Position numbers and translations under genes: made by a program
In this document: positions 1 through 23,097 of the stretch, in pieces
Layout: each line of letters starts with the position of its first letter
Position numbering within the stretch: the stretch's first letter is position 1
Virus record (IMG/VR): IMGVR_UViG_3300021373_002437
Location: 1-64,000 of that record
Source of the DNA: a virus
DNA: 64,000 nt
Reading direction: 5' to 3' (one strand)
Notes under the pieces: generated by a model
Databases searched by the model: none
What the model saw: the letters and a program-made list of their open reading frames with translations, nothing else
Told to the model about the DNA's origin: nothing

Positions 1-573
1 GGGTTGCTAGATAAATCTATTAATAGCTGGGTTATAGGAGAAAGGAGACCTGCGCTCGACGAGATAAAGAGATTTATTAATAATAACAATTTAAATCTAG
101 ACCCGAACGAGGTTTTTACCTTTTCATCGAAAGAAAAAACAGTGGATTCTTCCTTTTTATCACTCAAGACTGAAGGTAATCAAAATGTAATCCCTAAATT
201 TCTACTAGATAAAACAATATTTAGTTTTGTAACAGAGACTCACATTTATCAAAATATAACTTTAGTATCGGAAAAAACTTTTAAACCTCTTTTACAAAAA
301 CATCCTTTCATGGTTTATAGTCATCCTGAACACATGCACTATCTTCAAGAGTGTGGTTACGTCACTTATTCTGAAATGTTCGATGAATCTTATGATTATG
401 AAAATGATGAGAACAAAATAAAAATTTTAATTGATAATTTATTGTCCTTTAAAGATCGTGTAGTTGGCAAGGAACGTATTATCGAAGAGAAGTTGGAATA
501 TAATAGACAGCATTTTTTGACTATACCATGCAAGGAAAAAACAAAAAAGAAACTTTTGGATTTTTTTGAATGA
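1..573 (+). CDS. Glycosyltransferase-like protein, C-terminal part (cut by window edge)
   Basis: The reading frame is open from base 1, so the gene probably begins upstream; the first in-window start-like codon is TTG at 4. The visible ~190 residues contain the stretch SEKTFKPLLQKHPF followed by HYLQECGYVTYSEMFDESYD. This pattern of a conserved Glu-Lys-Thr-Phe, then a Pro-Phe turn, then a Gly-rich strand ending near DESYD recurs in C-terminal domains of GT-B-like glycosyltransferases of phages and bacteria. The family is inferred from motif memory only. Its stop overlaps the next start as ATGA, so it belongs to the same translationally coupled operon. Confidence 0.5.
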   Translation, partial: GLLDKSINSWVIGERRPALDEIKRFINNNNLNLDPNEVFTFSSKEKTVDSSFLSLKTEGNQNVIPKFLLDKTIFSFVTETHIYQNITLVSEKTFKPLLQKHPFMVYSHPEHMHYLQECGYVTYSEMFDESYDYENDENKIKILIDNLLSFKDRVVGKERIIEEKLEYNRQHFLTIPCKEKTKKKLLDFFE

Positions 574-2462
574 AGAAGATAGTATTGGTACAACCAAATT
601 ACAGGCAAGGGCCAAAAGAATTAAATGCATACTACCTCCCATATTCAGTAGGGGTACTATGGGCATATGCTATACAGTTTGAAACTATAACAAAAACCTA
701 TGAATTGGATAAAATTGTCTGGAAAAGGGATTTGATAGATGGTATAATAGATAGTTTCGATGACATAGATGTGGTAGCTTTCAGTACATATGTCTGGAAC
801 AAGAATTATAATTTTGAATTGGCAAGACGAATTAAAGAGCGAAACCCCTCTTGTATTACTATTTTCGGAGGACCAGAAATACAACTACAAAATAAAACGC
901 TCTTTTTACAGAACCCCTTTATGGATTATGTTGTAAAATTGGAGGGGGAATATGTGTTTAAAGATTTGTTGGAAAATTTGGATACCCCAGAACACATTAA
1001 AGGCATACTGATAAACAGGAACGGTGCAGTAATTGATACAGGAGAACCTACCCGAATTACGGATTTGAGTAGTTTACCCAGTCCATATCTTTCTGGTGTT
1101 TTCGATGGTTTGGTTGAAGATTATCCTGACGTTGAATGGAATGCCACATTGGAAACGAATCGCGGGTGCCCATATTCCTGTACCTTCTGCGATTGGGGCA
1201 GTTTAACATATAGTAAAGTTAAGAAGTTTGAATTAGATCGGGTATATGCAGAATTGGAGTGGATGGGTAAAACTGGCTGTGGATTTGTCAGTGTGACTGA
1301 CGCCAACTTTGGAATTTTCTTGGAGCGCGATAATCTAATTGTAGATAAACTTTTAGAAATACAAGAAGAGTACGGCAATCCATACACATTCAGCGTGACA
1401 TGGGCGAAGAACCAGAAGAGCGGGGTTATTGATATTGTTAAGAAGCTTACTGATAGTCCAAAGTCTAATCAGGGACTCACAGTAAGTGTTCAGAGTATGG
1501 ATTTGTCTGTTCTTGAAAACATTAAACGCAAAAATCTTAATCAGCATAAGATAGAAGAGATTTTTGAAATATGTGAAGAACGCAATATACCAACTTACAC
1601 AGAGGTAATATTGGGGTTACCGGGAGAAACCCTTGAGAGTTGGAAGCAAAATTTTTGGGAGTTGTTTGACGCTGGTGCCCACACCGGGTTAAATATTTTT
1701 CAGGCTCAACTACTAGAGAATGCTGAAATGAACTTGGGACAAACAGATGAATTTGAAATGACTTCTCAAGTTGTTTATGATTATATGAGTGGTAGTTATG
1801 ATGAAGACCCGATAAAAGAAGGGGTAAGAGCAGTAACTTCTACTAACACTATGTCTTTTGATGAGATGTTGGATGCACAAATTTTTAGTTGGTTTTTAAA
1901 TACATTTCATGTAAATGGGTTGACAAACTATATAAGTAGATTTTTACACAAAAATACAGATATAAATTATGAAAAGTTCTATGGTGGCTTGTATAAGTAT
2001 TTGCAACATGATAGCTGGTTCAAGGAGCAGGAAGATCAAGTAAGACAGTATTATAGAAAGTGGATGGAATCTGGTTTTATAAATCATCCAAAAATTGCTG
2101 GTGTTGAAATACACGGATGGAATTTAATACACCGTACAATTCTACAGATACATGTAGAAAAGAAAGTTGGTATGGTATTTGATTTGATATATAAATATTG
2201 TGAAAATATTTTTGATGGCGCAGAATTGTTAAATGATATATACAAATTTCAATCTACATATTTTATAGAGTGTGATGATAAGGTAAATTACCCAAAGACT
2301 ATTGATTTTAACTACGATTTTTTGTCTGGTGAATTTAAATTACCTGCGACTTATGTTTTCGATTTTCCAGAAGATAAAAACATGACAGACCAAACCTTTT
2401 TAGAGAATATATATTTTAGAAGGCGAAAAAATTTTGGTAAGGCTGAAATAAAGAAATTGTAA
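570..2462 (+). CDS. Cobalamin-binding-type radical SAM enzyme
   Basis: A 630-residue protein with B12-type radical SAM architecture. The N-terminal ~180 residues look like the Rossmann-like cobalamin-binding domain (VVAFSTYVW near 68-76, TIFGGPEIQ near 97-105). The radical SAM core starts at residue ~190 with RGCPYSCTFCDWG, giving the [4Fe-4S] ligands C200, C204 and C207 (CxxxCxxC). LGLPGET near 350 is the usual later motif of this class. Characterised members do methylations, ring contractions or other radical chemistry; the substrate cannot be told here. The C-terminal ~230 residues are an additional unrecognised domain. The start is coupled by ATGA to the preceding stop. It is the first of seven radical SAM genes in the operon and differs in architecture from the other six. 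Confidence 0.88.
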   Translation: MKKIVLVQPNYRQGPKELNAYYLPYSVGVLWAYAIQFETITKTYELDKIVWKRDLIDGIIDSFDDIDVVAFSTYVWNKNYNFELARRIKERNPSCITIFGGPEIQLQNKTLFLQNPFMDYVVKLEGEYVFKDLLENLDTPEHIKGILINRNGAVIDTGEPTRITDLSSLPSPYLSGVFDGLVEDYPDVEWNATLETNRGCPYSCTFCDWGSLTYSKVKKFELDRVYAELEWMGKTGCGFVSVTDANFGIFLERDNLIVDKLLEIQEEYGNPYTFSVTWAKNQKSGVIDIVKKLTDSPKSNQGLTVSVQSMDLSVLENIKRKNLNQHKIEEIFEICEERNIPTYTEVILGLPGETLESWKQNFWELFDAGAHTGLNIFQAQLLENAEMNLGQTDEFEMTSQVVYDYMSGSYDEDPIKEGVRAVTSTNTMSFDEMLDAQIFSWFLNTFHVNGLTNYISRFLHKNTDINYEKFYGGLYKYLQHDSWFKEQEDQVRQYYRKWMESGFINHPKIAGVEIHGWNLIHRTILQIHVEKKVGMVFDLIYKYCENIFDGAELLNDIYKFQSTYFIECDDKVNYPKTIDFNYDFLSGEFKLPATYVFDFPEDKNMTDQTFLENIYFRRRKNFGKAEIKKL

Positions 2463-3299
2463 ATGGAATTTTTTATTGAATATGAAACATATGAAGGGAA
2501 TTCAGATTCCTTGTGTTATTCTTTGTTTGAAAATGAGGTTGTTGATGCGTGGTTGGAATGTATCCAAATCGGTAGACCAGAATTGAATTTTGGTTTTTAT
2601 GGATTGTCTAGACTTGACATAGCAGAAGTATCTTTAAAATTGGCTGCTGCCTATGAGAAAATATCTGAAAAATTATTAGAAAAAGATCAAAACATCGATG
2701 TAAGTAAAATACTAATTGATGGTGCTGTCGATCAACACTTGTTAAATAGACTTCATGCAATTTTTCATCATTACAAAGATAGGGATTTGCAATATGGTTT
2801 AACCGGTAACACTTATCAAGAAATTCTACAACAATTGAATGGTTTGGTTCATTTACTAGAATCACAACCACACAAGAACTCCTACCAGTTTATAATTAAC
2901 CCGGTTAGAAACTATCGTGGAGTGGAAATTCCTGATCATTGGTATAAAAAATACTTTTCAGGGCCCGAACAACACGGAGATTTGGTTTTGGGGTACGGTA
3001 CTGTCGGCAAGGAATTGTTGGAAATATATAAAACAAAAGATGTAAAAAATTTAAATCTTATTAGCCCACAAAAATATGTGTATGGGGAATTTAGACAAAT
3101 TTTTAATGGAGAGATTAATTACATAAGTACAGAACAGCTTAGACTGTGGTGTGCAGAGAGTGGAAAATCTTCATTACATGAAAGAGAACTCTATACCTTT
3201 AGACCAAAGTTAGGAAAAATAAAAACAGATTTGAGCTTTAAACAATTGAGGCAAAAGTGCTTGACGTTTAAAAAAGTATTAGGAGTTGAGGTAGACTGA
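2463..3299 (+). CDS. Unrecognised family, paralogue A (radical SAM cassette)
   Basis: A 278-residue, apparently soluble protein that I do not recognise. It shares a sparse pattern with the products at 4576-5430 and 8303-9361. The shared pieces are a helix with LNRLHAIFHHY (near residue 94), a helix with LNGLVHLLE (near 125), a strand like NPVRNYRG, a LGYGTVGKELLEIY segment (near 177), and a later YGEFRQIF segment. Paired His residues on two predicted helices suggest a helical metal or cofactor site, but this is inference. It starts immediately after the stop of the B12-type radical SAM gene. Its repeated occurrence next to radical SAM genes suggests it is a partner or substrate carrier; no function is claimed. 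Confidence 0.75.
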   Translation: MEFFIEYETYEGNSDSLCYSLFENEVVDAWLECIQIGRPELNFGFYGLSRLDIAEVSLKLAAAYEKISEKLLEKDQNIDVSKILIDGAVDQHLLNRLHAIFHHYKDRDLQYGLTGNTYQEILQQLNGLVHLLESQPHKNSYQFIINPVRNYRGVEIPDHWYKKYFSGPEQHGDLVLGYGTVGKELLEIYKTKDVKNLNLISPQKYVYGEFRQIFNGEINYISTEQLRLWCAESGKSSLHERELYTFRPKLGKIKTDLSFKQLRQKCLTFKKVLGVEVD

Positions 3300-3332
3300 T
3301 GTAAGTGACTATGGTGTGTCATTGGTGATGTT

Positions 3333-4571
3333 ATGAAAATAGGTTTTATTGGAATCGGAAAACTTGGATTGTCTTGTGCTGAAAAGATTGCGGAATGTGG
3401 GTATTCCGTAGAGGGTTATGATATAACCCAAAAAAATACCAAAAATGTAAGTCAGGTTAGTACCATTGAGGAAGTAGTAGCAGACAAAGAAATCGTATTT
3501 GTGGCTGTCCCGACACCACATGACTCGAATTATGATGGTCGAAACCCCACATCACATCTGCCGCCCAAAGATTTTTATTATGATGTTGTTAAATCTGTTT
3601 TGGCTGAAGCAAACGACCATATGAATGAGAATCAAGTTCTTGTTTTGATCAGCACTGTTATTCCGGGCACCATAAGAAGTGAGATTATCCCTTTAATTAC
3701 TAATACTCAGTTTACATATAATCCTTATCTTATCGCCATGGGTAGTGTGTCTTGGGATATGGTAAACCCAGAAATGGTGATAATTGGAACTGAGACTGGT
3801 TCTAATGATGATGCTGCAAAGAAACTGGTAAATTTTTATAAGACCATAATGCAAAATGACCCAAGGTATGTACTGGGGACATGGGATGAAGCGGAAGCAA
3901 TCAAAATTTTTTACAACACATTCATCAGTACCAAGATTTCTCTTGTTAACATGATACAGGATGTAGCAGAAATTCAGGGAAATATTGATGTTGATGTGGT
4001 CACAGAAGCATTAGCACAAAGCGATATGCGTATCATGGGACCACAATATATGAAAGCTGGTATGGGTGATGGTGGTGGCTGTCACCCCAGAGATAATATT
4101 GCCCTAAGACACATGGCCCAGAAATTAGGTCTTGGGTATGACTTGTTTGCTAGTATAATGGGTGCCAGAGAGATGCAGGCAAAAAATCTTGCAAAATTAT
4201 TGGTTGAGCTTGCAGATACCCACAATAAGAATATATATATTCATGGAAAGTCCTACAAACCTGATGTAGATTTTTTGGATGGAAGTTACAGCATCCTTGT
4301 TGCATATTATTGTGAAGAGATTGGGTTTGATGTGACATACGTAGACCCCTTGACTGGGGATGATAATCAACCTGAAGAGCCATGTGTAATTCTTTTAGCC
4401 CACAGCCCAGCTACAACTTACAGATATACAACTAAGGAAACCGAAAAGGCAGATCAACTGTATTGCAAAATTCCTGATGGTAGTATAGTGGTTGACCCGT
4501 GGAGAAAATATGTTAATGAAAACTGCAAGGTAATACATTACGGCAACACCAGATATAACAGGGGGGGTTGA
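3333..4571 (+). CDS. UDP-glucose/GDP-mannose 6-dehydrogenase-like protein
   Basis: A 412-residue NAD-dependent dehydrogenase of the UDP-glucose dehydrogenase superfamily. Members oxidise a nucleotide sugar twice to a uronic acid. The N-terminal Rossmann motif is G7-x-G9-x-x-G12 (GFIGIGKLG), and VFVAVPTP near 55-62 is the typical strand of the family. The central helix has K191 and N195 (AIKIFYNTF) and the catalytic cysteine is C250 in MGDGGGCHPRDN. The C-terminal domain opens with HGKSYKPDVDFLDGS, close to the usual GxxYKPxxxDxRxS. It is slightly shorter than bacterial enzymes (about 430-450). It may supply an activated sugar acid for the glycosyltransferase-like genes of this genome; the exact sugar is unknown. 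Confidence 0.85.
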   Translation: MKIGFIGIGKLGLSCAEKIAECGYSVEGYDITQKNTKNVSQVSTIEEVVADKEIVFVAVPTPHDSNYDGRNPTSHLPPKDFYYDVVKSVLAEANDHMNENQVLVLISTVIPGTIRSEIIPLITNTQFTYNPYLIAMGSVSWDMVNPEMVIIGTETGSNDDAAKKLVNFYKTIMQNDPRYVLGTWDEAEAIKIFYNTFISTKISLVNMIQDVAEIQGNIDVDVVTEALAQSDMRIMGPQYMKAGMGDGGGCHPRDNIALRHMAQKLGLGYDLFASIMGAREMQAKNLAKLLVELADTHNKNIYIHGKSYKPDVDFLDGSYSILVAYYCEEIGFDVTYVDPLTGDDNQPEEPCVILLAHSPATTYRYTTKETEKADQLYCKIPDGSIVVDPWRKYVNENCKVIHYGNTRYNRGG

Positions 4572-4575
4572 GATT

Positions 4576-5430
4576 TTGTATATTAATGTATCTATATGTG
4601 ATGATGAAAAAGAACATACTTTTAGAATCGACCTGTTGTCTAACAAATATGTTGATCATTTATTTGAAAAACATGAAATATCTGGTAACTGGTCTTGGCA
4701 GAGAGTTGCTGTTCCGTCTGAATTGGATTATGATGCGGATAGAATAAAAGAATTGTGGGATGGGTGCCTTTCTTGTTACTATAAATTTTTAGACTTGATA
4801 GGAGCAAAAGATTTGGCAGCCCCCCCAGAAACTTTTGATTTTACCAATAAACATACGAATACTTTCCATCGAATTTTTACAACATACAACATTTCCTGTA
4901 CATACTATGGGGTTGAGTATGAATTTAAACAAGAAGCGTTGGATGAAGTGGAAGAACTTAATGTTCTTATTCATGAACTTGAAAAATATATTCCAAATAA
5001 AACAATCGATGATTTCAAGAAAGATTTTGGAAAGGTGGCGTGGATAGATATTCAGGGAGACAATCACGAGAAAGAAACTAGATTCAATTTTTATGAATCC
5101 GACAGAGAGTTTGTAAATAATTTTTCTGAGTATTGTAATGTTTTTTGCATCAAACATATATTGGGGAAAGACCATTTGATCGGTTATTTAAATGAAGATG
5201 AAAGTCATCATTGGGATATAACAAATTTTCATTTGGGTTATTGTGGGTTTTGTTTGGATTTCCGGGGCGATTTACAACGGGTGTGGAAATACCCACCGTT
5301 GAAAGATTGGGCTGGAGAGGTTTCTTTATCATATTATCCGGTGGGTAGAATATCCGAAGAAGATATGGATGTAATTAGAGGACTTTCTAGTAATGTGAAA
5401 GTTGTAGGGGTTGAATATATAAATGGCTGA
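4576..5430 (+). CDS. Unrecognised family, paralogue B (radical SAM cassette)
   Basis: A 284-residue protein, probably started at the TTG at 4576, four bases after the dehydrogenase stop; no ATG fits better. It is related by pattern to the products at 2463-3299 and 8303-9361: TNTFHRIFTTY (near 93) corresponds to LNRLHAIFHHY and LNQLHHHFEIL, and ELNVLIHELE (near 126) corresponds to LNGLVHLLE and LNNLVHELQ. The N-terminus is more divergent and the C-terminal part has YCGFCLDFRGDLQ in place of the YGEF/SGEF segment. The end overlaps the first twitch radical SAM gene by 8 bases. Function is unknown. Confidence 0.72.
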   Translation: MYINVSICDDEKEHTFRIDLLSNKYVDHLFEKHEISGNWSWQRVAVPSELDYDADRIKELWDGCLSCYYKFLDLIGAKDLAAPPETFDFTNKHTNTFHRIFTTYNISCTYYGVEYEFKQEALDEVEELNVLIHELEKYIPNKTIDDFKKDFGKVAWIDIQGDNHEKETRFNFYESDREFVNNFSEYCNVFCIKHILGKDHLIGYLNEDESHHWDITNFHLGYCGFCLDFRGDLQRVWKYPPLKDWAGEVSLSYYPVGRISEEDMDVIRGLSSNVKVVGVEYING

Positions 5431-6883
5431 ACAATTCACGGACAATACGAAAAATGAAGATCGTATTAAGATTTTAGAGATAAAACGTGATCAAATCAAT
5501 GAGGTAAGTCCTTCTTTTTGTACTGCCAAATGGTTACAAACGACTCTTTATTTACAGACTGGATTTAATCATTCTTGTCACCACCCATCACCACACAAAA
5601 TACCAGTGAAAGAAGTTCTAGAAAATCCTGCTGCACTTCATAACAGCAAATTTAAAAAAGAACAGCGTGAAAAGATGTTGGCGGGAGAACGACCAAAAGA
5701 ATGTGATTATTGCTGGAATATAGAAGATTTAGATAATAAGTATTTCTCTGATAGGCATTATAAAACGTCCGACTATTGGGCTTGGGATAGGTTCGACGAG
5801 ATAACAAATTCAAATCCAGAAGATGATATTTTTCCTTCTTATCTGGAAGTTTCCTTCTCAAATGCTTGTAACTTTGCATGTTCTTATTGTTCCCCAGATA
5901 TAAGTTCGAAGTGGATGAAGGACATTAAAAGTAATGGCCCATATCCCGTCAAGTTTGGTAGCCACCACCTTTCTTATTTGCGAGAGAGAGAACAGTTCCC
6001 ATACTCACACGATGAATATAATCCATACGTCGAAGCCTTTGACAAATGGTTCCCAGAAGCGTATCCCCATCTAAAAGTTTTTCGTATTACTGGTGGTGAA
6101 CCAACCATGTCAAAAGATTTCTGGAAAACCTTGGATTTTATACTTGAGAATCCAAGACCCGATCTTGAGATTTCAATTAATACTAATCTGGGCACACCAA
6201 AAGAATTGATTGATCGTTTAATTGTTTATGCTAAGAAATTAGATGAGACTTGTAAGGAATGTTTAATATTTACTAGCTGCGAAGCCTACAAAGAGCAAGC
6301 AGAGTATATTAGAGACGGTATGAATTATGACTATTGGTATTCTAATATTGTAAGGTTCCTAGAAGAGACCGATTGTAAAGTTTGTACTATGACAACGATT
6401 AATGTGTTGAGCTTACCATCATTTTCTAGGTGGCTTGATGATATGATGCAGCTACGAATTAAATATGATAAAGACAAATATGCACACCGAACCCCGATAA
6501 GTTTTAATTATTTGAGGTTCCCACCACACTTACAGGTGACCATTCTACCAAGAAAATATAGAGAGCGGTTTGCTAGGGAATTATCGGCTACAGCATTACA
6601 GTGGCATAAGAGAAATACTAGAATTGCCCATGCGAAGATATATCTAGAAGAACAAGATCAGATTGCTAGGTTCTGTGAATATTTGTTGAAAGATACTACT
6701 TCTGGTCCAAAGTACCGGGAAAATTTTATGCAGTTCATACAGCATTATGATTATAGAAGAAATAAAAACTTTACTGAAACTTTCCCGCAATATAAAAAGC
6801 TTTATGGAGAATGGCAAGAAGAATATGCAGAATCTCTATCAGCCGATAAGAGAAATCTTGAGTTAGGTAACCACGTTGAGTGA
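5423..6883 (+). CDS. Twitch-type radical SAM protein (SCHHP subgroup, 1)
   Basis: A 486-residue radical SAM protein with inverted domain order. An N-terminal twitch-like auxiliary cluster domain carries C33 (PSFCTAKW), C52 (SCHHP, 51-55), and C94/C97 (ERPKECDYCW). The core follows with C149, C153 and C156 (NACNFACSYC) and RITGGEPTMS near 220. The end carries YDYRRNKNFTETFPQY, a signature shared by its neighbours. It forms a subgroup with 6876-8306 and 9363-10760, all having HKIP after SCHHP. The chemistry is presumably SAM cleavage to a 5'-deoxyadenosyl radical; the substrate is unknown. It overlaps the neighbours on both sides, indicating translational coupling. Confidence 0.88.
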   Translation: MAEQFTDNTKNEDRIKILEIKRDQINEVSPSFCTAKWLQTTLYLQTGFNHSCHHPSPHKIPVKEVLENPAALHNSKFKKEQREKMLAGERPKECDYCWNIEDLDNKYFSDRHYKTSDYWAWDRFDEITNSNPEDDIFPSYLEVSFSNACNFACSYCSPDISSKWMKDIKSNGPYPVKFGSHHLSYLREREQFPYSHDEYNPYVEAFDKWFPEAYPHLKVFRITGGEPTMSKDFWKTLDFILENPRPDLEISINTNLGTPKELIDRLIVYAKKLDETCKECLIFTSCEAYKEQAEYIRDGMNYDYWYSNIVRFLEETDCKVCTMTTINVLSLPSFSRWLDDMMQLRIKYDKDKYAHRTPISFNYLRFPPHLQVTILPRKYRERFARELSATALQWHKRNTRIAHAKIYLEEQDQIARFCEYLLKDTTSGPKYRENFMQFIQHYDYRRNKNFTETFPQYKKLYGEWQEEYAESLSADKRNLELGNHVE

Positions 6884-8306
6884 TCATTTAATAGAATATA
6901 GAAAACGAGTCCTTGATGCGAAGTCCCCGTCTTTCTGTGGTGCGAAATGGTATAATGCTACTACTTGGTTAGGTAGTGGAACTACTGCATCGTGCCACCA
7001 CCCGACTGCTCATAAAATACCTCTTGTGGAGCTAGAGGCTGATCATACTGCAATACACAACACGAAGCATAAGAAAGCAGTTAGAAAGATGATGCAAGAA
7101 GGCGAAAGGCCAAAGGAGTGTGAATATTGTTGGCGCATTGAGGATATGGGTAAGGATTCTGTTTCGGATAGAGTTTTCAAATCAGAAATCTACAGCGAAG
7201 AAGACCTTCAGAAAGCTTATGAAATGGATTGGAAAGATAGTGTTGATTTAAAGACTTTTGAAATTGCTTTTGATCGAACATGTAACCTAGCATGTTCTTA
7301 TTGCAACCCCTCCTTTTCTTCTACGTGGGCTAGGGACATTAAAAAACTGGGTCCATACCAGAATCTTTTATCTGATGGAGCGGGTGCGTTTGAACAAGAT
7401 GGTTCTTGGACTGAGCCTTATGGTAGAGACGAAGAGAACCCGTATATCACAGCATTTTGGAAGTGGTGGGATGATGGGTTGTCAGATAGTCTAGAAGAAT
7501 TACGTATTACTGGTGGTGAACCCCTAATGTCTGGTAACACTTGGAAGTTATTTGATTGGTTTGAACAACAAGATTCTGACATGAGGTTTGCAATCAATAC
7601 AAATTTCATGGCAAAGGACGAAATTGTTGATCGTTTGATTGAAAAATCTCACCACATAAAACATTTTGAGCTTTATACTAGTGCTGAGTGTTATGGCACC
7701 CAGCAAGAATTTTTACGTGATGGGTTTGAATGGGATACATGGTCGAAAAATATGGACCGATTTGCAGAAGAGGGTAATTATCATAGCATAAATATCATGA
7801 TGACGATCACTGCTTTGAGTGTGTTTTCTATTACAGAATTCTTAGACGAAGTTACAGATATGAAGCAGAGAAGTCGTGCTGGCAAACATCCTGTAATAAG
7901 CGTCAATATTTTGAGGTTCCCTAGCTTCCAAAGCGTTGTGACATTACCAGAACATATAAGAGCATTTTGTAGAAACGAGTTGTTTCTTTGGATTGAAGAG
8001 AATAAAAATTTGCCCTGTTGGTTAGATTTTGAAATCGCCAGCCTGCAAAGACTGGTCGATTATCTGTATTCATACGACTCTCCATTTGAGAAGGCTAGTG
8101 AGTTGGAGGTTCGACAACAAGACTTAAAATCTTTCTTTGATCAATACTGTGATCGTAGAGGTAAGGACATAAACGTATTTCCAACAATTTTTACCGAATG
8201 GTATAATTCTTTGGAAAGTGGGTATAAGAAAGCAGCTTTGAAGTCTGGAGATAATACTAGATTTTTGGATGATAATAGATTAATAGAACTGAGGGACATA
8301 TTATGA
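6876..8306 (+). CDS. Twitch-type radical SAM protein (SCHHP subgroup, 2)
   Basis: A 476-residue paralogue of the preceding protein. The start is the TTG at 6876, overlapping the previous stop by 8 bases; the next in-frame ATG would delete the N-terminal cluster ligands. Twitch ligands are C21 (PSFCGAKW), C40 (SCHHP), C82 and C85 (ERPKECEYCW). Radical SAM ligands are C136, C140 and C143 (RTCNLACSYC), followed by RITGGEPLMS. The C-terminal CDRRGKDINVFPTIF matches the DxRR...FP signature of the group. The region NILRFPSFQSVVTLPEH corresponds to NYLRFPPHLQVTILPRK in the first copy. Divergence between copies is large, so this is an old duplication and probably specialised in substrate. Confidence 0.88.
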   Translation: MSDHLIEYRKRVLDAKSPSFCGAKWYNATTWLGSGTTASCHHPTAHKIPLVELEADHTAIHNTKHKKAVRKMMQEGERPKECEYCWRIEDMGKDSVSDRVFKSEIYSEEDLQKAYEMDWKDSVDLKTFEIAFDRTCNLACSYCNPSFSSTWARDIKKLGPYQNLLSDGAGAFEQDGSWTEPYGRDEENPYITAFWKWWDDGLSDSLEELRITGGEPLMSGNTWKLFDWFEQQDSDMRFAINTNFMAKDEIVDRLIEKSHHIKHFELYTSAECYGTQQEFLRDGFEWDTWSKNMDRFAEEGNYHSINIMMTITALSVFSITEFLDEVTDMKQRSRAGKHPVISVNILRFPSFQSVVTLPEHIRAFCRNELFLWIEENKNLPCWLDFEIASLQRLVDYLYSYDSPFEKASELEVRQQDLKSFFDQYCDRRGKDINVFPTIFTEWYNSLESGYKKAALKSGDNTRFLDDNRLIELRDIL

Positions 8307-9361
8307 CAAAGACTGTTGTAATGACTTTACAAAATCCTCTTGATGAGAGTGATTTGTTGGAGATTGAATATGAAGTATTGGACACCACTATAGGTAACCA
8401 ATGGTTTGATCATTGCATCATGAATCTGAACAAACGACAAAGAGTTGAGAAAAATTTTTGTTGGTTGGGTTGGCCTGATCAAAACAGGACAGTTGAGTTT
8501 CTTGCAGAGCGACTAGAGCGTTGCGTTGATACTATAAATGAATTTGCGGATACTAATAATCCACATTGGAATGGATACCGTATAGAAAAGAGTTGGGAAG
8601 ATATTACCAGTGATGATGCCTTAAATCAACTTCATCACCATTTTGAAATTTTGATGGGACAGGTTTGGGATGTTGCAATCTATATGCGTTCTGCTGACCC
8701 AAAAACCTCCTATGCTATTCGGCAATTGAATAATTTAGTTCACGAACTACAAGCTAGGAAATATGCCAACAAATCTGGTATGACTGTTGTGAGTTATTTG
8801 GACCCGATTAGAGAAGAGTTTGACGAACAGCATTATGACAGCTTTTCTATAAACAGAAATTTTGGTGATATCTTCTTACATTACGCACAAACTGGAAAAA
8901 CACCAATAGAAGCATTTGAGGACAATGATGATTATGTGTTTAATAATAACATAAATGCATTGCGATACATGTCTGGTGAATTTAATATTTGGTGGAATGC
9001 TTCAACCTCTGAATCTGATGTAAATTCAACTAAAGAGAAACTTGGAGCATGGTTAAACGCCAGAGAAGTTATCATGCAAGAGCAAGATGATTTTTGTTAT
9101 TATGTTGACCCTGATGGTAATAAACAGGGTATCGGGTGGCTGACAGTAGCAAAGATAAAAAACCCTTTCGAAACAGAAGACGAATTGGTTGAAGAGGTTA
9201 ATAAGCGTCTTAATATATATAAGCTTGCCTGTTATATTGATGGTGAATTTGTTACTGAAATGCAGTGGGATTATAAGTGGTCTGATGAAGACTATATTGA
9301 AAATGAAGTAGAGTATTTGACTCCACTATTTCCATGCTCACAACCTAACGCTTTGGATTGA
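8303..9361 (+). CDS. Unrecognised family, paralogue C (radical SAM cassette)
   Basis: A 352-residue protein, the longest of three related copies. Its start overlaps the preceding radical SAM stop by ATGA. The shared pattern is clearest against 2463-3299: LNQLHHHFEILMG (near 114), LNNLVHELQ (near 146), VVSYLDPIR (near 162), DIFLHYAQTGKTPIEAFED (near 188), and YMSGEFNIWW (near 220). Its C-terminal ~110 residues, absent from the shortest copy, are acidic and contain YYVDPDGNKQGIGW. The His/Glu pairs on adjacent predicted helices could bind metal, but this is speculative. It sits between two SCHHP-subgroup radical SAM genes, strengthening the link between the two families. Confidence 0.75.
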   Translation: MTKTVVMTLQNPLDESDLLEIEYEVLDTTIGNQWFDHCIMNLNKRQRVEKNFCWLGWPDQNRTVEFLAERLERCVDTINEFADTNNPHWNGYRIEKSWEDITSDDALNQLHHHFEILMGQVWDVAIYMRSADPKTSYAIRQLNNLVHELQARKYANKSGMTVVSYLDPIREEFDEQHYDSFSINRNFGDIFLHYAQTGKTPIEAFEDNDDYVFNNNINALRYMSGEFNIWWNASTSESDVNSTKEKLGAWLNAREVIMQEQDDFCYYVDPDGNKQGIGWLTVAKIKNPFETEDELVEEVNKRLNIYKLACYIDGEFVTEMQWDYKWSDEDYIENEVEYLTPLFPCSQPNALD

Positions 9362-9362
9362 A

Positions 9363-10760
9363 ATGCCACATACATACGATTTAATAAAGGTTAAAGATAT
9401 AACGGAACAATTGAATGAAGTTGGTCCCGGTTTTTGTATGGCTAAGTGGTACCACATTAGCATGCATCTACATACGGGACAAAATCACAGTTGTTACCAC
9501 CCAGCCCCACATAAAATTCCATTGAAAGAAGCACAGGAGAACCCTAATGTACTCCACAATACCCCATATAAGAAACAGGTTCGAAAAGAAATGTTGTCTG
9601 GTGGTAGACCCTCAGAATGTTCTTATTGTTGGGATGTAGAAGACTTGCCCGGAGACCATATTTCTGATAGAATGTTAAGGTCTTCTGAAGAATGGTCTAT
9701 ACCTAAAATTGAAGAAACTTCAAAGATGACCGGGGATGAAGATGTTTATCCTGCATATCTAGAACTGAATTTTAGTAATCGCTGCCAATTTAAGTGTAGT
9801 TACTGCGCTCCTATGGCTAGTTCTACTTGGGTTAATGAAACGGATAAGTATGGTGATTGGCCTTTGGAAAACCCGATCAATGTTAGGCAGTACCAAAACA
9901 TATCATTCCAAAATGAGGGGACTAAACATGGAGAAGAAGATTCGAACCCATATATTAAAGTCTTTTGGGATTGGTTTCCAGAAGCATATCCTCATGTACA
10001 GACACTTAGATTCACTGGTGGCGAGCCTTTATTAAGCCCCAATGTTTTCAAGGTTCTTGATTATGTTTCAGAACACCCAAACCCAGAACTTAAATTTGCT
10101 GTAAACAGTAACATGTCAGTTCCTCAGAGAAACATAGAGCGGTTCATTAATGTCACTAATGATTTGGTGCAAAATAATAAAATCAAGGGGTATGGGGTAT
10201 TCACCAGTGTAGATACGTGGGGGGCACAAGCTGAATGGATACGTAATGGATTGAACATAGAGAAATACGAAAACAATCTTCATTACTACATGCAAAACTC
10301 CGCAACCCCATATATGAGTTTTATGGTCACGTTCTGTTTGCTGGCAATTCCTAGGTTCACGGAATTTTTGGATAAAGTATTGGAATTGAGGAAGCAGTAT
10401 AACGTTTGTAATGATCAGCGCCAAAGAATAAACTTTGATACTCCATACACAGTAGAACCACCACATTTAACCGCTAGAATTGCAGATGATTGGTTTGTGG
10501 AAAGATTAGATCACAACTGTCAATACATTTTAGACAGGGTTGATGACAATGATGTGAATGCGTTTTCCATGGTAGAATATGAAAAGCTTCATCGGGTTTT
10601 GGAGTGGGTGAAGAGAAGTAGATTTGAGGGCGATGAATTGGCAATGAACCGTAGAGACTTTGCTAAATTTGTCGATGAACATGACAGGAGACGGGGCACA
10701 GACTTTCATGCTGCATTCCCTGAACTTAGAGAATTTTATGAGATGTGTAGAAAATCATGA
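9363..10760 (+). CDS. Twitch-type radical SAM protein (SCHHP subgroup, 3)
   Basis: A 465-residue third member of the subgroup, one base after the preceding stop. The N-terminal auxiliary domain has C25 (GPGFCMAKW), C44 (SCYHP, one His replaced by Tyr), C86 and C89 (GRPSECSYCW). Core ligands are C141, C145 and C148 (NRCQFKCSYC), then LRFTGGEPLLS. The C-terminal signature is DEHDRRRGTDFHAAFPEL. In the second core region the protein reads NFDTPYTVEPPHLTARI, less like the LRFP strand of copies 1 and 2, so the substrate pocket may differ. Its end overlaps the next start as ATGA. Confidence 0.88.
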   Translation: MPHTYDLIKVKDITEQLNEVGPGFCMAKWYHISMHLHTGQNHSCYHPAPHKIPLKEAQENPNVLHNTPYKKQVRKEMLSGGRPSECSYCWDVEDLPGDHISDRMLRSSEEWSIPKIEETSKMTGDEDVYPAYLELNFSNRCQFKCSYCAPMASSTWVNETDKYGDWPLENPINVRQYQNISFQNEGTKHGEEDSNPYIKVFWDWFPEAYPHVQTLRFTGGEPLLSPNVFKVLDYVSEHPNPELKFAVNSNMSVPQRNIERFINVTNDLVQNNKIKGYGVFTSVDTWGAQAEWIRNGLNIEKYENNLHYYMQNSATPYMSFMVTFCLLAIPRFTEFLDKVLELRKQYNVCNDQRQRINFDTPYTVEPPHLTARIADDWFVERLDHNCQYILDRVDDNDVNAFSMVEYEKLHRVLEWVKRSRFEGDELAMNRRDFAKFVDEHDRRRGTDFHAAFPELREFYEMCRKS

Positions 10761-12064
10761 AAGATGAAAAAAATGAAATTATGTGCAAAACATTCACCGA
10801 TGATGTTCAGGAGTCATTTTGTGTACTTCCCTTTGTCCACACAAACCTGAACACTGAGGGAGATGTTTACCCCTGTTGTATTTCTTGGGACGCAGAGCGT
10901 TCAAATAAAATTGGTCTTTTAAAAGATAATACTTTAGAAGAATTATTCAACGATGATAAGCTACAACAACTTCGTCGCGACTTGATATCAGGAACGCGCC
11001 GCCCCGATGTTTGTGTTCGCTGTTACACTTCTGAAGACAATGGTTTTCCTGCTGGTAGACATGGCAACAATCGTGATCTGCAGCACATGATTCCTCAAAT
11101 ATTAGAGGACTATTCTGAAACCGGATATATGCCACCGAAAATAAAAAGCTGGGATATTCGTTATAGTAATTTATGTAATTTGAAATGTAGAAGTTGTGGT
11201 GGAATATACAGCACTACATGGTCAAAAGAAGATTCTGAGTTTTATCATGGGATGGAATACCGCGAGATAAAATCATATGAAGGAAAAGACCCTCTTGAGA
11301 ACCAATATGAACACGTAGAAAAAATATATTTTGCTGGTGGTGAGCCACTTATAATGCCAGAACATTTTTCAACCCTGAAGAAGTTGATTGAAATCGATAG
11401 AGCCAAGTACGTTAGATTAGTTTATAATACTAACATGACAAAACTCAATTATGATAGGAACTACTTACCAGATTTGTGGAAAGAATTTAAAGCAGTTTCA
11501 TTGGGGTTGAGTATAGATAATTTTGGGGATAGAGCAAACTACATACGTCATGGAAATATAAAATGGAACAAAATAGAAGATAATATTAAGAAAATGTATG
11601 AATATACAACGACTCCCGGTTCTAATATGGATTACTTTTTTTCACCAACTGTGAGTTTATTGAATGTGTATACTTTAACAGATTTGCATCGCTATTTATT
11701 TGAAAATGGTATGATGGTCCACCCAGACCAAATACTTCTCAACATTTTGTATCACCCACAGGAACTTTCTATCACCATACTCCCTGACCACATAAAGGAA
11801 GAAATATCTGGCAAAATTATTGCACATATAGCGTGGTTGAATTCCTTGGACGGTACTTATGGCAATGCCAAAGGGCAATTTGAAAGTCTATTGTCCTATA
11901 TACATGAGACAATACCGAATGTGGAAGAACATGTTGAACGTTTTGTGAAAAGAACCCAAGAGATTGACCACAGAAGAAATGAATGCTTCCCAGATACCTT
12001 TCCAGAATATGCAGAATGGTGGCAAACTATTACTAAGGACAAAATTTTCGCGGTAAACATATGA
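10757..12064 (+). CDS. Twitch-type radical SAM protein (PCC subgroup, 1)
   Basis: A 435-residue radical SAM protein with the canonical version of the N-terminal twitch domain: SFCVLPF (C22), VYPCCISW (C40/C41), a TLEELFNDDKLQQLRRDL helix and PDVCVRCYTSED (C86, C89). Radical SAM ligands are C140, C144 and C147 (NLCNLKCRSC), followed by YFAGGEPLIM. The C-terminus has EIDHRRNECFPDTFPEY. This Cys-Cys plus Cys-x-x-Cys arrangement is what SPASM/twitch domains use to hold an auxiliary [4Fe-4S] cluster. It differs from the SCHHP group in having a doublet of cysteines. It is coupled by ATGA overlaps on both sides. Confidence 0.9.
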   Translation: MKDEKNEIMCKTFTDDVQESFCVLPFVHTNLNTEGDVYPCCISWDAERSNKIGLLKDNTLEELFNDDKLQQLRRDLISGTRRPDVCVRCYTSEDNGFPAGRHGNNRDLQHMIPQILEDYSETGYMPPKIKSWDIRYSNLCNLKCRSCGGIYSTTWSKEDSEFYHGMEYREIKSYEGKDPLENQYEHVEKIYFAGGEPLIMPEHFSTLKKLIEIDRAKYVRLVYNTNMTKLNYDRNYLPDLWKEFKAVSLGLSIDNFGDRANYIRHGNIKWNKIEDNIKKMYEYTTTPGSNMDYFFSPTVSLLNVYTLTDLHRYLFENGMMVHPDQILLNILYHPQELSITILPDHIKEEISGKIIAHIAWLNSLDGTYGNAKGQFESLLSYIHETIPNVEEHVERFVKRTQEIDHRRNECFPDTFPEYAEWWQTITKDKIFAVNI

Positions 12065-13329
12065 AAGAACTGCCCAAAACTATATGTGCTCACCCGTGGC
12101 AACATTTACATAGTTGGCCTGATGGGAAGGCTATGTTGTGCTGTGTTGCCCATGGGGGAGATAAACACGGTGCTGTTGGTGATTTTTCGGTTAATTCATA
12201 CGAAGAAATTATGAACAGTGATAAAATGAATCAAATCCGAAAAGATTTCTTGAATGGTGAGAAACCCGTTGAGTGTAGTGCTTGTTGGAAAGCTGAAGAG
12301 TTGGGTAAAAGCAGTTTTAGGTTAGATATTGGTCTCAGCGATGAAGTAAGAGATTTGATGGAAAGAACCTCCGATAATGGAGAGCTTCCAGAAACAAAGA
12401 TGTATTACATGGATTACCGATTCAGCAATCTGTGTAACCTTGGTTGTCAAACTTGTGGTAGTCCACTTAGCAGCACAATAGCAAATAAGAGGGAGAATAA
12501 CGAGAGTGAAAATTCTATACTGAGAGACCGAGGGGTTTTATCTGAGAGGGGTACTGTTACATCATTTGTTTATGCCAGACCAGATTTCATGGAAGTTGAT
12601 GTTTATCCATATTTGGATGATTGTCGGAGTTTTTATTTTGCTGGTGGTGAACCGTTAATGCACCAAGAACATCTGGATATACTTAACTACCTAAACGACA
12701 ATAAATTATACAATAAGCACATAATGTATAGTACAAACCTGTCAATTTTATCATGGAAGGGTAACGACTTTATTGATATTTGGAAAAACTTTAGCAACTT
12801 GATGTTTTGGTGTAGTGTAGATGCACATGGCCCCGCATTAGAATATGTTAGGGAATATTCCAACCACGACACGATCTTTAAAAATTTGCAAAAGTTGTTA
12901 GATGCAAAAAAAGATCATCCCCAAATGAAGATAAATATTTGCTGTACCCACAGTGTATATAATGCATATTGTTTTCCAGAATTTATAGACTTTTTGTATG
13001 AGCAGGGATTTCTACAACTGCTGGATGATATTGAAATAAACTATGCTTTTGGAGATTTGAATTCTCCAGCAATACTTCCTAACTTCGCAAAAAAGGAACT
13101 AAAAGAGAAGAGGGCCCTTTGTAGGAACAATGAATCAATTCAATATGCAATGCAAAAATTTGATAAGTTTGAATATTACTATGACACAGTAGATTCTGTT
13201 ATAGACGAACCCAGTCAAAAAAGAGTCTGGGATGATCTGGTCTCAAAAAAATTGATAAAAGATATGAAAAAGCTTGAAAACAGCCTGCCTTGGTTGCACA
13301 GTGTTGTTGAGAGGTATAGAATTGTATGA
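12061..13329 (+). CDS. Twitch-type radical SAM protein (PCC subgroup, 2)
   Basis: A 422-residue protein. Twitch ligands are C9 (TICAHPW), C27/C28 (AMLCCVA), C72 and C75 (VECSACWKAEE). Core ligands are C125, C129 and C132 (NLCNLGCQTC) followed by SSTIANKR, then FYFAGGEPLM. Unlike the others the C-terminus lacks an obvious DxRR...FPE signature and ends SLPWLHSVVERY. Start and stop overlap neighbours by 4 bases (ATGA). The substrate is unknown; the operon context implies it acts on the same product as its five relatives. Confidence 0.88.
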   Translation: MKELPKTICAHPWQHLHSWPDGKAMLCCVAHGGDKHGAVGDFSVNSYEEIMNSDKMNQIRKDFLNGEKPVECSACWKAEELGKSSFRLDIGLSDEVRDLMERTSDNGELPETKMYYMDYRFSNLCNLGCQTCGSPLSSTIANKRENNESENSILRDRGVLSERGTVTSFVYARPDFMEVDVYPYLDDCRSFYFAGGEPLMHQEHLDILNYLNDNKLYNKHIMYSTNLSILSWKGNDFIDIWKNFSNLMFWCSVDAHGPALEYVREYSNHDTIFKNLQKLLDAKKDHPQMKINICCTHSVYNAYCFPEFIDFLYEQGFLQLLDDIEINYAFGDLNSPAILPNFAKKELKEKRALCRNNESIQYAMQKFDKFEYYYDTVDSVIDEPSQKRVWDDLVSKKLIKDMKKLENSLPWLHSVVERYRIV

Positions 13330-14531
13330 CACATTGCATTAACGTATATAAAGGACTTAGATATACCAATAGTGGGGATGTTCAGTTTTGTTGTAAGAGT
13401 GATATGTTTCTAGATGATAAGGATGGGAACAAGGCACAAATTTATACTCACACCCTAGAAGAAGCCCAAAATGGAAATCTTGCTGTCGAAATTAGAGAAG
13501 ATTTGGAGCGGGGGGTAAAACATAAGAATTGCCAGAAATGTTGGGATGAAGAAGAAGCTGGCATTTCTAGTAAAAGAATTTTGGACAACCAAAGAGCTAT
13601 TCGATATTGGGGAGAAAGGTATTTAAATGATAAAGTGGTATCCCCAGAAATAGTTGAGTTTAATTTTGGAACTATTTGCAACCTCAAATGTAGAATATGT
13701 GGTCCGTGGTCGAGCAGTAGATGGAATTCTGAATTTTATGAGTTGCTTGCCGGGGAGGATTATCCAAAAGAACATCACGACAACCAAGTTTCTTTGTGGC
13801 AAGGTAATTGGGAAGATGATAGTCCTGCGTGGGACAATATTTCTAAAAGCATCGGCAACCTAAGACACATTGATTTCTATGGTGGCGAGCCTTTTTTGGT
13901 AGACCGCAATTGGGAAATATTGAAGCAGAATGTTGAAAATGGTAATTCCTCAAACCAATATATCCATTTCAATACGAATGGAACTCGTTATGAGGAAGAG
14001 CATATAGAAATTTTAAAGAGTTATCGTAGAATAAATATAAGTTTATCTATTGACGATATGGGGGAGCGATTTAATTATCAGAGGCATCCGGCTAACTGGG
14101 ATATAGTAAATGAAAACTTAAAGAAATTTAAAGAGCTTGAAGAAGAATTCCCCCAGTTTGAAGTTATGGTCTGTGTGACTGTTAATAATTTAAATTTGTG
14201 GTATATACCGGAATTGGTGAATTATTTTGATAGTATGGGAATACCCTATTATATAAACTATTTACACTACCCCTCCCACTATAACATATCAAATTTAAAA
14301 CAAGATGTTAAGCCTTTGGTGGCGCAAAAATATGATGAAGCCATGATGGAGATGCAATGTAATTATAGTAAAGATAATTTGAAAGCAATAATAAATTATA
14401 TGAATGTTAATATAGGCACCGCTGAACGGTGGAATGAATTTTTAAATAAAACTGAATTCAGTGATAAATATAGAAAACAAAATTTTAAAAGTGTTTTTCC
14501 TGAGTGGGCCGATGTGTTGGGGATTGTGTAA
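13326..14531 (+). CDS. Twitch-type radical SAM protein (PCC subgroup, 3)
   Basis: A 401-residue protein. Twitch ligands are C4, C22/C23 (VQFCCKSD), C69 and C72 (KNCQKCWDEEEAG). Core ligands are C118, C122 and C125 (TICNLKCRIC) followed by GPWSSSRWN, a run typical of this family, and then DFYGGEPFLV. The C-terminus has KQNFKSVFPEWADVLG, a degenerate form of the FPE signature. It is the last of the radical SAM series. The stop is followed directly by the TTG start of the SDR gene, continuing the operon. Confidence 0.88.
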   Translation: MTHCINVYKGLRYTNSGDVQFCCKSDMFLDDKDGNKAQIYTHTLEEAQNGNLAVEIREDLERGVKHKNCQKCWDEEEAGISSKRILDNQRAIRYWGERYLNDKVVSPEIVEFNFGTICNLKCRICGPWSSSRWNSEFYELLAGEDYPKEHHDNQVSLWQGNWEDDSPAWDNISKSIGNLRHIDFYGGEPFLVDRNWEILKQNVENGNSSNQYIHFNTNGTRYEEEHIEILKSYRRINISLSIDDMGERFNYQRHPANWDIVNENLKKFKELEEEFPQFEVMVCVTVNNLNLWYIPELVNYFDSMGIPYYINYLHYPSHYNISNLKQDVKPLVAQKYDEAMMEMQCNYSKDNLKAIINYMNVNIGTAERWNEFLNKTEFSDKYRKQNFKSVFPEWADVLGIV

Positions 14532-15203
14532 TTGAATATAGTTATAGTTGGTGCTGGGAATGACCCGCAAAGATTTGGGGGATATTTCAAACAAGTTGCA
14601 GAAGAAGCGGAACATACTGTTTATACGTTTTCTTATAGACTTGAAACTACCGCTCTTGAGGACGTTCCAGTTATTTTTGAGTTGGATGTTTTAGATCGTA
14701 TACCAGAGGGAGAAACAATAGACTTGTTTCTATACAATTCCATTGGTGGGTTTTATCCGGGTCAACCAAAACATTATTCTTCATTGCACGATGTTAATAT
14801 GTACGAGTGGCAGAAATCTATTCTCATAAACGCAGCAATTCCACACAAACTTTCTACAATGGCTTTAAGAAAAATGGATGAAAACAGTTCTATTGTGTTT
14901 ATGACTTCTTCTGCCTCTTATTTGATAAACAGAGACAATTATTTGGAAATGGCTGGTTACTTTGGCACTAAAGGTGCTATGAATCAACTTATGCGAGCCA
15001 TGGCAGAATATAATGATAAGGGGACTACAGTATATACCATGGCACCGCACATACCATACGAAAATCCAGAACAGGCACGACTCATATTGAAAAAATTGAC
15101 CGATTACATTTTATCTATGAATAAAGAAAGTAATGGAAAAATACTACAGTGTTATCCACCAGATGGTAGAATCTGGCCCCACGAGGGAGGACAACATCCA
15201 TGA
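14532..15203 (+). CDS. Short-chain dehydrogenase/reductase-like protein
   Basis: A 223-residue protein with the SDR fold signature: an N-terminal NAD(P) strand IVIVGAG with G7-x-G9, a VFMTSSAS strand carrying the catalytic Ser, and YFGTKGAMNQL, which is the YxxxK active-site motif. It is at the short end of the family. The start is TTG directly after the previous TAA. It is followed with ATGA overlap by a 42-codon peptide. It could reduce or oxidise a sugar or a radical SAM product; the substrate cannot be inferred. Confidence 0.8.
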   Translation: MNIVIVGAGNDPQRFGGYFKQVAEEAEHTVYTFSYRLETTALEDVPVIFELDVLDRIPEGETIDLFLYNSIGGFYPGQPKHYSSLHDVNMYEWQKSILINAAIPHKLSTMALRKMDENSSIVFMTSSASYLINRDNYLEMAGYFGTKGAMNQLMRAMAEYNDKGTTVYTMAPHIPYENPEQARLILKKLTDYILSMNKESNGKILQCYPPDGRIWPHEGGQHP

Positions 15204-17363: not shown

Positions 17364-17371
17364 TATAAATA
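17364..17371 (+). promoter_or_regulatory. T4-type late promoter
   Basis: An exact TATAAATA box 8 bases before the ATG at 17380. With T4 spacing (box at -13 to -6) transcription would begin about 3 bases before the start codon. It marks the boundary between the accessory operon and the next block. A match of 8 bases alone is weak, but its intergenic position supports it. Confidence 0.6.
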
Positions 17372-19192: not shown

Positions 19193-19399
19193 ATGACTAA
19201 TCCCACGAATGTTGTGGAAAGCTTCAACGAGGCTGTTACCCGAGACGAGAACTTTGTCGATGGGAAAATACACTGGAATTTCGTAGAAGCTGATGTTTAC
19301 ATGGACTCATCTGAGTTTGGTTTTGCCATTCCAGATGATTTTGATGTGCTTTTTGATACTTTGGCTTCTGAGTTCGAACAGGCCCAGCATGCCGCTTAG
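19193..19399 (+). CDS. Small acidic protein of unknown function
   Basis: A 68-residue acidic protein. The ATG at 19193 is preferred over an in-frame upstream ATG because it follows AAAGAGGA and lies just downstream of the sigma70-type promoter. It is rich in Asp, Glu and Phe (FDVLFDTLASEFEQ). First gene of the transcript, so it may act early; no family recognised. Its end overlaps the next start by 11 bases. Confidence 0.65.
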   Translation: MTNPTNVVESFNEAVTRDENFVDGKIHWNFVEADVYMDSSEFGFAIPDDFDVLFDTLASEFEQAQHAA

Positions 19400-22681: not shown

Positions 22682-22682
22682 A

Positions 22683-23071: not shown

Positions 23072-23097
23072 TACATATAATAATAAGAGAAATCTCC

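What the first reader, a model, noticed from the sequence alone, without database searches (positions are those of the whole stretch)
570..14531. Seven radical SAM genes in one coupled phage operon
One cobalamin-type and six twitch-type radical SAM genes lie in order on one strand, most overlapping by 4-8 bases. All seven keep the CxxxCxxC ligands (for example C200/C204/C207, C149/C153/C156, C140/C144/C147). The six twitch proteins split into two subgroups by their auxiliary cluster domain (SCHHP-HKIP versus PCC). A phage paying for about 9 kb of radical chemistry suggests a multi-step modification of a phage component or a small molecule. I know of no described system with this composition.
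Basis: partly seen in the sequence, partly recalled or inferred. Interest (0 to 1): 0.9.

Follow-up and report, generated by a model that had tools for sequence, protein, structure and literature searches.

The report
Radical-enzyme sugar-coat island in marine phage
An uncultivated T4-like marine phage carries a block of seven radical-chemistry enzyme genes, six of them in an order shared with other phages and related to genes that sit beside cell-surface sugar-export genes in Bdellovibrio-like bacteria, so the phage probably uses them to build or alter an unusual surface sugar chain.

Summary
One cobalamin-type and six twitch-type radical SAM genes lie on one strand at 570-14531, tightly coupled, ligands intact. 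Corrections: four other genes are interleaved; the unit continues upstream past the contig edge and downstream to a carbamoyltransferase (17361); the cobalamin gene is not part of the conserved core.

All six twitch proteins belong to a named family, N_Twi_rSAM (NF033640), and multi-radical-SAM marine T4-like phages were reported in 2017 and 2020. Not found described: (i) T1-T2-u7-T3-T4-T5-T6 keeps its order in three phages; (ii) SCHHP-type genes precede PCC-type genes in all 30 viral array loci; (iii) T2, T6 and two further groups are shared with Bdellovibrionota chromosomes, which can hold up to 19 full-length copies; (iv) in 15 of 82 bacterial loci, mostly Bdellovibrionota, a Wzm-type surface-polysaccharide exporter lies within 10 kb (about 0.6 expected).

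Best explanation: a glycan-tailoring island that makes an unusual surface sugar, more likely on the infected host than on the virion. The glycan context is supported by gene neighbourhoods; the chemistry, order of steps and target are inferred.

The parts
4..573 (+). C-terminal part of a putative glycosyltransferase-like ORF (gt0), cut by the contig edge; first visible gene of the unit
   Evidence: overlaps the B12 gene by 4 bases; relatives recur beside twitch arrays; no Pfam match, so the glycosyltransferase label is a guess from motif and context
570..2462 (+). B12: cobalamin-binding radical SAM protein, TokK/CysS/KedN5-like methylase (630 aa), C200/C204/C207
   Evidence: PF04055 and PF02310 over cut-off; TokK E 6e-78, CysS E 3e-57; NF033712 237.6 bits, below its cut-off of 700
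2463..3299 (+). u2: companion protein, distant homologue of u7
   Evidence: phmmer to u7 E 4e-8; no close viral relative found
3333..4571 (+). UGD: nucleotide-sugar dehydrogenase homologue, catalytic-type GGGCHPRD motif kept
   Evidence: PF00984 E 5e-20, PF03721 E 4e-16; TIGR03026 173.5 bits against cut-off 189.8
4576..5430 (+). u4: unknown, 284 aa; only a visual motif likeness to u2/u7
   Evidence: no significant phmmer link to u2/u7; sub-threshold RRM_3 hit regarded as chance; no viral relative
5423..6883 (+). T1: N-twitch radical SAM, SCHHP type, C149/C153/C156; auxiliary Cys 33, 52, 94, 97
   Evidence: NF033640 319.8 bits; AlphaFold model pLDDT 91.4; PDB neighbours SkfB, BlsE, DesII, MoaA
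6876..8306 (+). T2: N-twitch radical SAM, SCHHP type, C136/C140/C143
   Evidence: NF033640 297 bits; T2 clade with Bdellovibrionota members, support 96-99
8303..9361 (+). u7: conserved partner protein, cyclophilin-like barrel with helical hairpin carrying N108/H111 and N143/H147
   Evidence: model pLDDT 77.6, VIA Z up to 10.5 over about 140 residues, no significant Foldseek match; homologues beside twitch genes in phages and Bdellovibrionota
9363..10760 (+). T3: N-twitch radical SAM, SCHHP type, C141/C145/C148
   Evidence: NF033640 306.3 bits
10757..12064 (+). T4: N-twitch radical SAM, PCC type, C140/C144/C147
   Evidence: NF033640 354.9 bits; Pfam SPASM at residues 22-90, over cut-off
12061..13329 (+). 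T5: N-twitch radical SAM, PCC type, C125/C129/C132
   Evidence: NF033640 285.7 bits; Pfam SPASM at residues 9-76, over cut-off
13326..14531 (+). T6: N-twitch radical SAM, PCC type, C118/C122/C125
   Evidence: NF033640 307.2 bits; T6 clade with Bdellovibrionota members, support 99
14532..15203 (+). SDR-family oxidoreductase
   Evidence: PF00106 31.7 bits, over cut-off; lies between T3 and T4 in L009 and after 2OG in L081
15321..15926 (+). 2OG-Fe(II) oxygenase-like protein
   Evidence: weak PF13640, E 0.0045, below cut-off; follows T6 in L009 and L081
15928..17361 (+). CarbT: NodU/TobZ-type O-carbamoyltransferase, last gene of the unit
   Evidence: PF16861 E 2e-54, PF02543 E 2e-37; adjacent to twitch genes in many phages
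17364..17371 (+). T4-type late promoter motif TATAAATA directly after the CarbT stop; marks the start of the next unit
   Evidence: 17 such motifs in the window against 5 expected; none between 2198 and 17363

Best explanation
A phage glycan-tailoring island. Shown by sequence: six paralogous N-twitch radical SAM enzymes, a cobalamin radical-SAM protein, a nucleotide-sugar-dehydrogenase homologue, an SDR, a 2OG-oxygenase-like protein and a carbamoyltransferase in one tightly packed unit. Inferred mechanism: the dehydrogenase supplies a uronic-type nucleotide sugar. The twitch enzymes cleave SAM, and the 5'-deoxyadenosyl radical abstracts an H atom from a ring carbon of a sugar residue; the auxiliary 4-Cys cluster takes or gives the electron, so that each paralogue epimerises, dehydrogenates or deoxygenates a different residue or position in turn. 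The SCHHP-type enzymes may act before the PCC-type ones. u7 serves as a partner or substrate-presenting protein. The cobalamin protein, where present, adds a C-methyl branch. SDR, 2OG-oxygenase and CarbT reduce, hydroxylate and carbamoylate. Phage or host glycosyltransferases assemble the product. The glycan most likely ends up on the infected cell's surface, changing receptor structure and blocking superinfection; display on tail fibres is the alternative.
For: A twitch gene (T1-type in most) lies within 10 kb of a Wzm-type permease in 15 of 82 bacterial genome-contig loci, mostly Bdellovibrionota, while five sampled genomes carry 1-2 such permeases and one carries none; about 0.6 expected (relatedness not corrected). 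In 8 loci a GT1 gene directly follows the T1-type gene. The permease and ATPase match Wzm (6m96), Wzt (6amx, 8dku), RfbE and TagH best. Neighbours of viral arrays: GT7 domains in 19 of 127 proteins, carbamoyltransferases 4, NAD epimerases 3, a dTDP-sugar isomerase and a UGD; bacterial neighbours include GT2 in 5 of 134. The B12 gene's relatives follow glycosyltransferase-like genes in L070, L071, L075 and L077 (labelled by eye). Pelagimyophage host-recognition regions mix radical-SAM cassettes with glycosyltransferases (PMC7029224). Order is kept: T1-T2-u7-T3-T4-T5-T6 in window, L009 and L081; SCHHP-before-PCC polarity in 30 of 30 viral array loci. Structural neighbours of T1 include BlsE and DesII, which act on a sugar nucleoside and a nucleotide sugar (general knowledge). 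Four phage relatives encode an A-type Fe-S carrier.
Against: No substrate or reaction is shown, and no member of NF033640 with a known activity was found. The window's own unit holds no recognisable complete glycosyltransferase. Most bacterial twitch loci (67 of 82) have no Wzm homologue in the stretch held. The nearest structure, SkfB, modifies a peptide. Host surface versus virion cannot be decided from sequence. G000 itself shows no Fe-S carrier in the 96 kb held.
Confidence: 0.55

Rival explanations
1. Virion glycosylation: the same enzymes decorate a sugar that is attached to tail fibres or other virion proteins of the phage rather than to the host surface.
For: Neighbours of viral arrays include many LamG-type lectin/fibre-like proteins (22 of 127) and GT7-type glycosyltransferases (19 of 127); in L140 and L153 the arrays start shortly after fibre-like genes.
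Against: Bdellovibrionota homologues sit with a polysaccharide exporter, which points to a cell-surface glycan. The window array itself is not next to tail genes; PhoH follows it and the baseplate genes are about 13 kb away.
Confidence: 0.2
2. Peptide or protein maturation: the twitch enzymes install cross-links, epimerisations or other changes on a ribosomally made peptide or a phage protein, with u7 as the binding partner.
For: Best structural and sequence neighbours include the RiPP maturases SkfB and SuiB; u7 looks cyclophilin-like, a fold known for peptide binding (binding from general knowledge).
Against: No room for a precursor gene: within 570-14531 the largest gap is 33 bases, and up to 17361 it is 117 bases. 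Neighbours are sugar enzymes.
Confidence: 0.15
3. Nucleotide or nucleic-acid modification: the enzymes make altered nucleotides (viperin-like) or hypermodified DNA bases.
For: Weak viperin-profile matches (T4 5.5e-8) and viperin among structural neighbours; glycosyltransferases and 2OG oxygenases also occur in DNA hypermodification (general knowledge).
Against: T4 scores 32 bits against the viperin cut-off of 180; polysaccharide-export context in bacteria. The genome was not searched for DNA-modification genes.
Confidence: 0.07

Closest known systems
Radical-SAM cassettes in the host-recognition cluster of pelagimyophages (PMC7029224) and T4-like TARA_ERS488813_N000010 with 12 radical SAM genes (PMC5332604)
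   Same: T4-like marine phages; several radical SAM genes; mixed with glycosyltransferases and sugar genes in the hypervariable region; Fe-S assembly genes in some
   Different: The passages read give counts or cassette differences only; no ordered six-gene N-twitch array, u7 partner, SCHHP-before-PCC polarity or Bdellovibrionota orthologues
NCBIfam NF033640 N_Twi_rSAM
   Same: All six twitch proteins score well over the curated cut-off
   Different: A family name without an assigned function; gene order, phage arrays and polysaccharide-export linkage are not part of the model
TokK / CysS / KedN5 cobalamin radical-SAM methylases
   Same: B12 gene: TokK E 6e-78 and CysS E 3e-57 over most of the protein
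   Different: Below the KedN5 family cut-off (237.6 against 700 bits); phage setting with sugar genes rather than an antibiotic cluster
BtrN (twitch radical-SAM dehydrogenase acting on an aminocyclitol)
   Same: The auxiliary-cluster domain of the twitch proteins matches BtrN's twitch domain (E 0.0015)
   Different: Here the twitch domain is N-terminal to the radical SAM core; in BtrN it is C-terminal
Serotype-converting phages (e.g. Shigella flexneri SfV/SfX)
   Same: Working idea: phage enzymes alter the host surface glycan and exclude other phages
   Different: Those use glucosyl- or acetyltransferases in temperate phages; here radical chemistry in a T4-like phage, effect unproven

Membership tests
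N_Twi_rSAM (NF033640) | score over the curated cut-off of 170 bits | tested here: met
   T1-T6 score 285.7-354.9 bits
N_Twi_rSAM (NF033640) | CxxxCxxC radical SAM motif | tested here: met
   present in all six and in 52 of 52 relatives
N_Twi_rSAM (NF033640) | N-terminal twitch/half-SPASM domain with four Cys ligands | tested here: met
   four Cys invariant in 52 of 52; Pfam SPASM at the N-terminus of T4 and T5 over cut-off; BtrN twitch match E 0.0015
KedN5-family B12 radical SAM C-methyltransferase (NF033712) | score over the curated cut-off of 700 bits | tested here: not met
   237.6 bits, profile positions 16-385 of 624 only
Cobalamin-dependent radical SAM superfamily (class B) | B12-binding domain plus radical SAM core | tested here: met
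   PF02310 32.3 bits against 32.1; PF04055 45.4 against 29.5; TokK E 6e-78
Pelagimyophage host-recognition-cluster cassette | T4-like phage of the HTVC008M group | tested here: inconclusive
   baseplate gp6 nearest to HTVC008M but only 39% identical; cyanophages follow closely
Pelagimyophage host-recognition-cluster cassette | position beside tail-fibre genes | tested here: inconclusive
   contig begins inside the unit; the right neighbour is the PhoH region; relatives' arrays do lie beside LamG/GT7 genes
Nucleotide-sugar dehydrogenase (TIGR03026) | score over the curated cut-off of 189.8 bits | tested here: not met
   173.5 bits; Pfam UGD N-terminal and central domains over cut-off
RiPP biosynthetic cluster | precursor-peptide gene next to the maturase | tested here: not met
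   no intergenic gap over 33 bases within 570-14531, 117 bases up to 17361
Viperin (NF038283) | score over the curated cut-off of 180 bits | tested here: not met
   best 32.3 bits, T4
Serotype-conversion system | altered host surface glycan during infection | not testable with these tools
   needs LPS/glycan chemistry of infected cells

The most novel reading that the evidence does not exclude
An exchangeable radical-SAM pathway for assembling an unusual polysaccharide, shared by marine T4-like phages and Bdellovibrionota, in which a series of paralogous N-twitch enzymes each modify one position of a growing surface glycan: polymer editing by radical chemistry, used by phages to change the surface of infected cells.
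Probability: 0.25. Interest if true: 0.85.

Novelty: new variant of a known kind. Interest (0 to 1): 0.62.

Why it matters
Radical SAM enzymes are rarely tied to surface-glycan assembly, and the radical-SAM expansions seen in marine phages have had no function attached. The conserved order, the u7 partner and the exporter-linked homologues in Bdellovibrionota make the function directly testable. If right, it would reveal new sugar chemistry, a phage strategy for changing host surfaces that depends on iron, SAM and in some phages cobalamin, and gene traffic between marine phages and Bdellovibrionota.

Tried and rejected
Viral scans for u2 and u4 found no relatives. PHROGs gave only generic radical-SAM families. 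Cultured phages have no close homologues: the best for T1 is Vibrio phage K566 at 26.5%, for T4 24%. A mixed 33-row alignment was too diverse for the genome scan; a 12-row SCHHP-type alignment worked, so the bacterial sample leans towards SCHHP types. u7 gave no significant Foldseek match, and its cyclophilin-like assignment rests on VIA Z 9-10.5 only. L119 has u7 beside a twitch gene but in a chemotaxis context, which does not support the glycan reading. Viperin-like nucleotide chemistry and a RiPP cluster were considered and rated low. The T4 orthology between phages and bacteria is not firmly supported in the mixture-model tree, so the shared-group claim rests on T2, T6 and groups X and Y. 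L140 and L153 are listed as Pelagibacter/Rickettsiales MAGs but look like phage contigs and are not counted as bacterial evidence for the shared groups. DNA-modification genes were not searched for.
Full report
WHAT IS THERE. The window is bases 1-64000 of a 95,980-base linear IMG/VR viral contig. It is a T4-like marine myovirus: gp32-like protein, PhoH, gp6-type baseplate wedge, tail lysozyme and large terminase; the gp6 homologue is nearest to Pelagibacter phage HTVC008M at 39% identity. The seven reported genes are present at the reported coordinates with intact ligands. The block is tighter and longer than reported: from the truncated ORF at 4-573 to the carbamoyltransferase ending at 17361, junctions range from -8 to +33 bases except one of 117. 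The T4-type late promoter motif TATAAATA occurs 17 times in the window against 5 expected. It is absent between 2198 and 17363 and reappears at 17364, directly after the carbamoyltransferase stop. That fits one transcription unit that ends there; the upstream start lies beyond the contig.

THE TWITCH FAMILY. T1-T6 all exceed the NF033640 cut-off. In 52 non-redundant relatives the auxiliary cysteines, the CxxxCxxC motif, GGEP and several further residues are invariant. Pfam SPASM matches the N-terminus of T4 and T5, and the profile's N-terminal part matches the BtrN twitch domain, which is C-terminal in BtrN, so this is a displaced auxiliary domain. T1 folds with high confidence (pLDDT 91.4) onto SkfB, BlsE, DesII and MoaA. 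The trees split SCHHP (T1-T3) from PCC (T4-T6) with full support. The paralogues compared are 18-34% identical, so they are old and not recent tandem copies.

RELATIVES. A scan with T1 found 61 viral contigs. Arrays vary: of twelve records searched whole, eight hold 4-8 full-length copies and four hold 1-3. L009 (contig G001) keeps T1-T2-u7-T3-T4-T5-T6, with the SDR inserted between T3 and T4. L081, found independently with u7 as query, has exactly T1-T2-u7-T3-T4-T5-T6. In all 30 viral array loci that contain both kinds (several are overlapping or near-identical), the SCHHP genes precede the PCC genes. The cobalamin gene is not upstream of T1 in L009 or L081. Its relatives in other phages follow glycosyltransferase-like genes.

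BACTERIAL HOMOLOGUES. The genome scan returned mostly Bdellovibrionota. Six genomes reached through those loci hold 4 to 19 full-length copies over cut-off each (7-33 matches counting partial ones and other radical SAM proteins); in an even sample of 39 genomes of the phylum, 10 have the family over cut-off, with 1-9 copies. Viral and bacterial sequences interleave in the trees; the T2, T6, X and Y groups contain both with support of 96 or more. On a Bacteriovoracaceae contig (L109, with ObgE beside the array) the order is T2-X-Y-T4-T6.

CONTEXT POINTING TO GLYCANS. In 15 of 82 bacterial loci, mostly Bdellovibrionota, a homologue of the L132 ABC-2 permease lies within about 10 kb of a twitch gene, and in 8 loci a GT1 gene directly follows the T1-type gene, often with two further conserved ORFs. 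The permease and ATPase match Wzm, Wzt, RfbE and TagH best. The sampled genomes carry 0-2 such permeases, so about 0.6 co-locations would be expected by chance; relatedness between the loci is not corrected. Neighbours of viral arrays are rich in GT7 and LamG domains, with carbamoyltransferases, epimerases and a UGD. Published pelagimyophage work places radical-SAM cassettes in a region rich in glycosyltransferases and proposes O-chain modification for the latter (PMC7029224).

THE PARTNER u7. u7 is homologous to u2 (E 4e-8) and has homologues beside twitch genes in phages and in Bdellovibrionota L132 and L119. Its model shows a cyclophilin-like barrel with a helical hairpin that carries invariant Asn/His residues. 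The fold assignment is tentative and the function unknown.

HOW IT PROBABLY WORKS. See Best explanation. Shown: gene content, coupling, conserved order, intact ligands, shared groups and exporter linkage in bacteria. Inferred: that the substrate is a sugar, the type of radical reaction, the order of steps, and display on the host surface.

WHAT IS KNOWN. Multi-radical-SAM T4-like marine phages (PMC5332604) and radical-SAM cassettes in pelagimyophages (PMC7029224) are published, and the protein family is named. I found no description of the ordered array, the u7 partner, the polarity or the Bdellovibrionota polysaccharide link; the literature tool holds only open-licence papers, so this is not proof of novelty.

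Noticed in passing
window 22654-23113 (+): Permuted (two-piece) tmRNA encoded by the phage: ARAGORN tag ANDDVYHQDILLAA, Rfam RF04321 94.7 bits against a gathering score of 47. Points to a host lineage with permuted tmRNA such as Alphaproteobacteria or cyanobacteria.
   Followed up: partly
window, whole: TATAAATA late-promoter motif is over-represented (17 against 5 expected), often just before structural genes.
   Followed up: partly
L165-L166 (G016 C1 745-775 kb): A Bdellovibrionota chromosome with 13 N-twitch radical SAM genes within about 30 kb, interspersed with unknown ORFs.
   Followed up: partly
L070, L071, L075, L077: The TokK-like gene in other phages lies in a region with QueD/QueE-like genes, DegT-like aminotransferase, SDR, GT-like and nucleotidyltransferase-like genes (labelled by eye).
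   Followed up: no
L018, L020, L024, L029: In other phages a single T1-type gene is followed directly by a carbamoyltransferase, a minimal pair that could be a simpler test system.
   Followed up: no
L086 8096-8701, L081 3379-3984, L082/L085/L083: A conserved protein of about 202 aa (FWxxQxxSK motif) sits directly before T1 or near twitch genes in several phages; no NCBIfam match.
   Followed up: no
L140 and L153: Contigs binned as Pelagibacter and Rickettsiales MAGs look like T4-like phage with the ordered array.
   Followed up: partly
window 19293-20147 (+): GT61-like glycosyltransferase, below the Pfam cut-off, next to PhoH.
   Followed up: no
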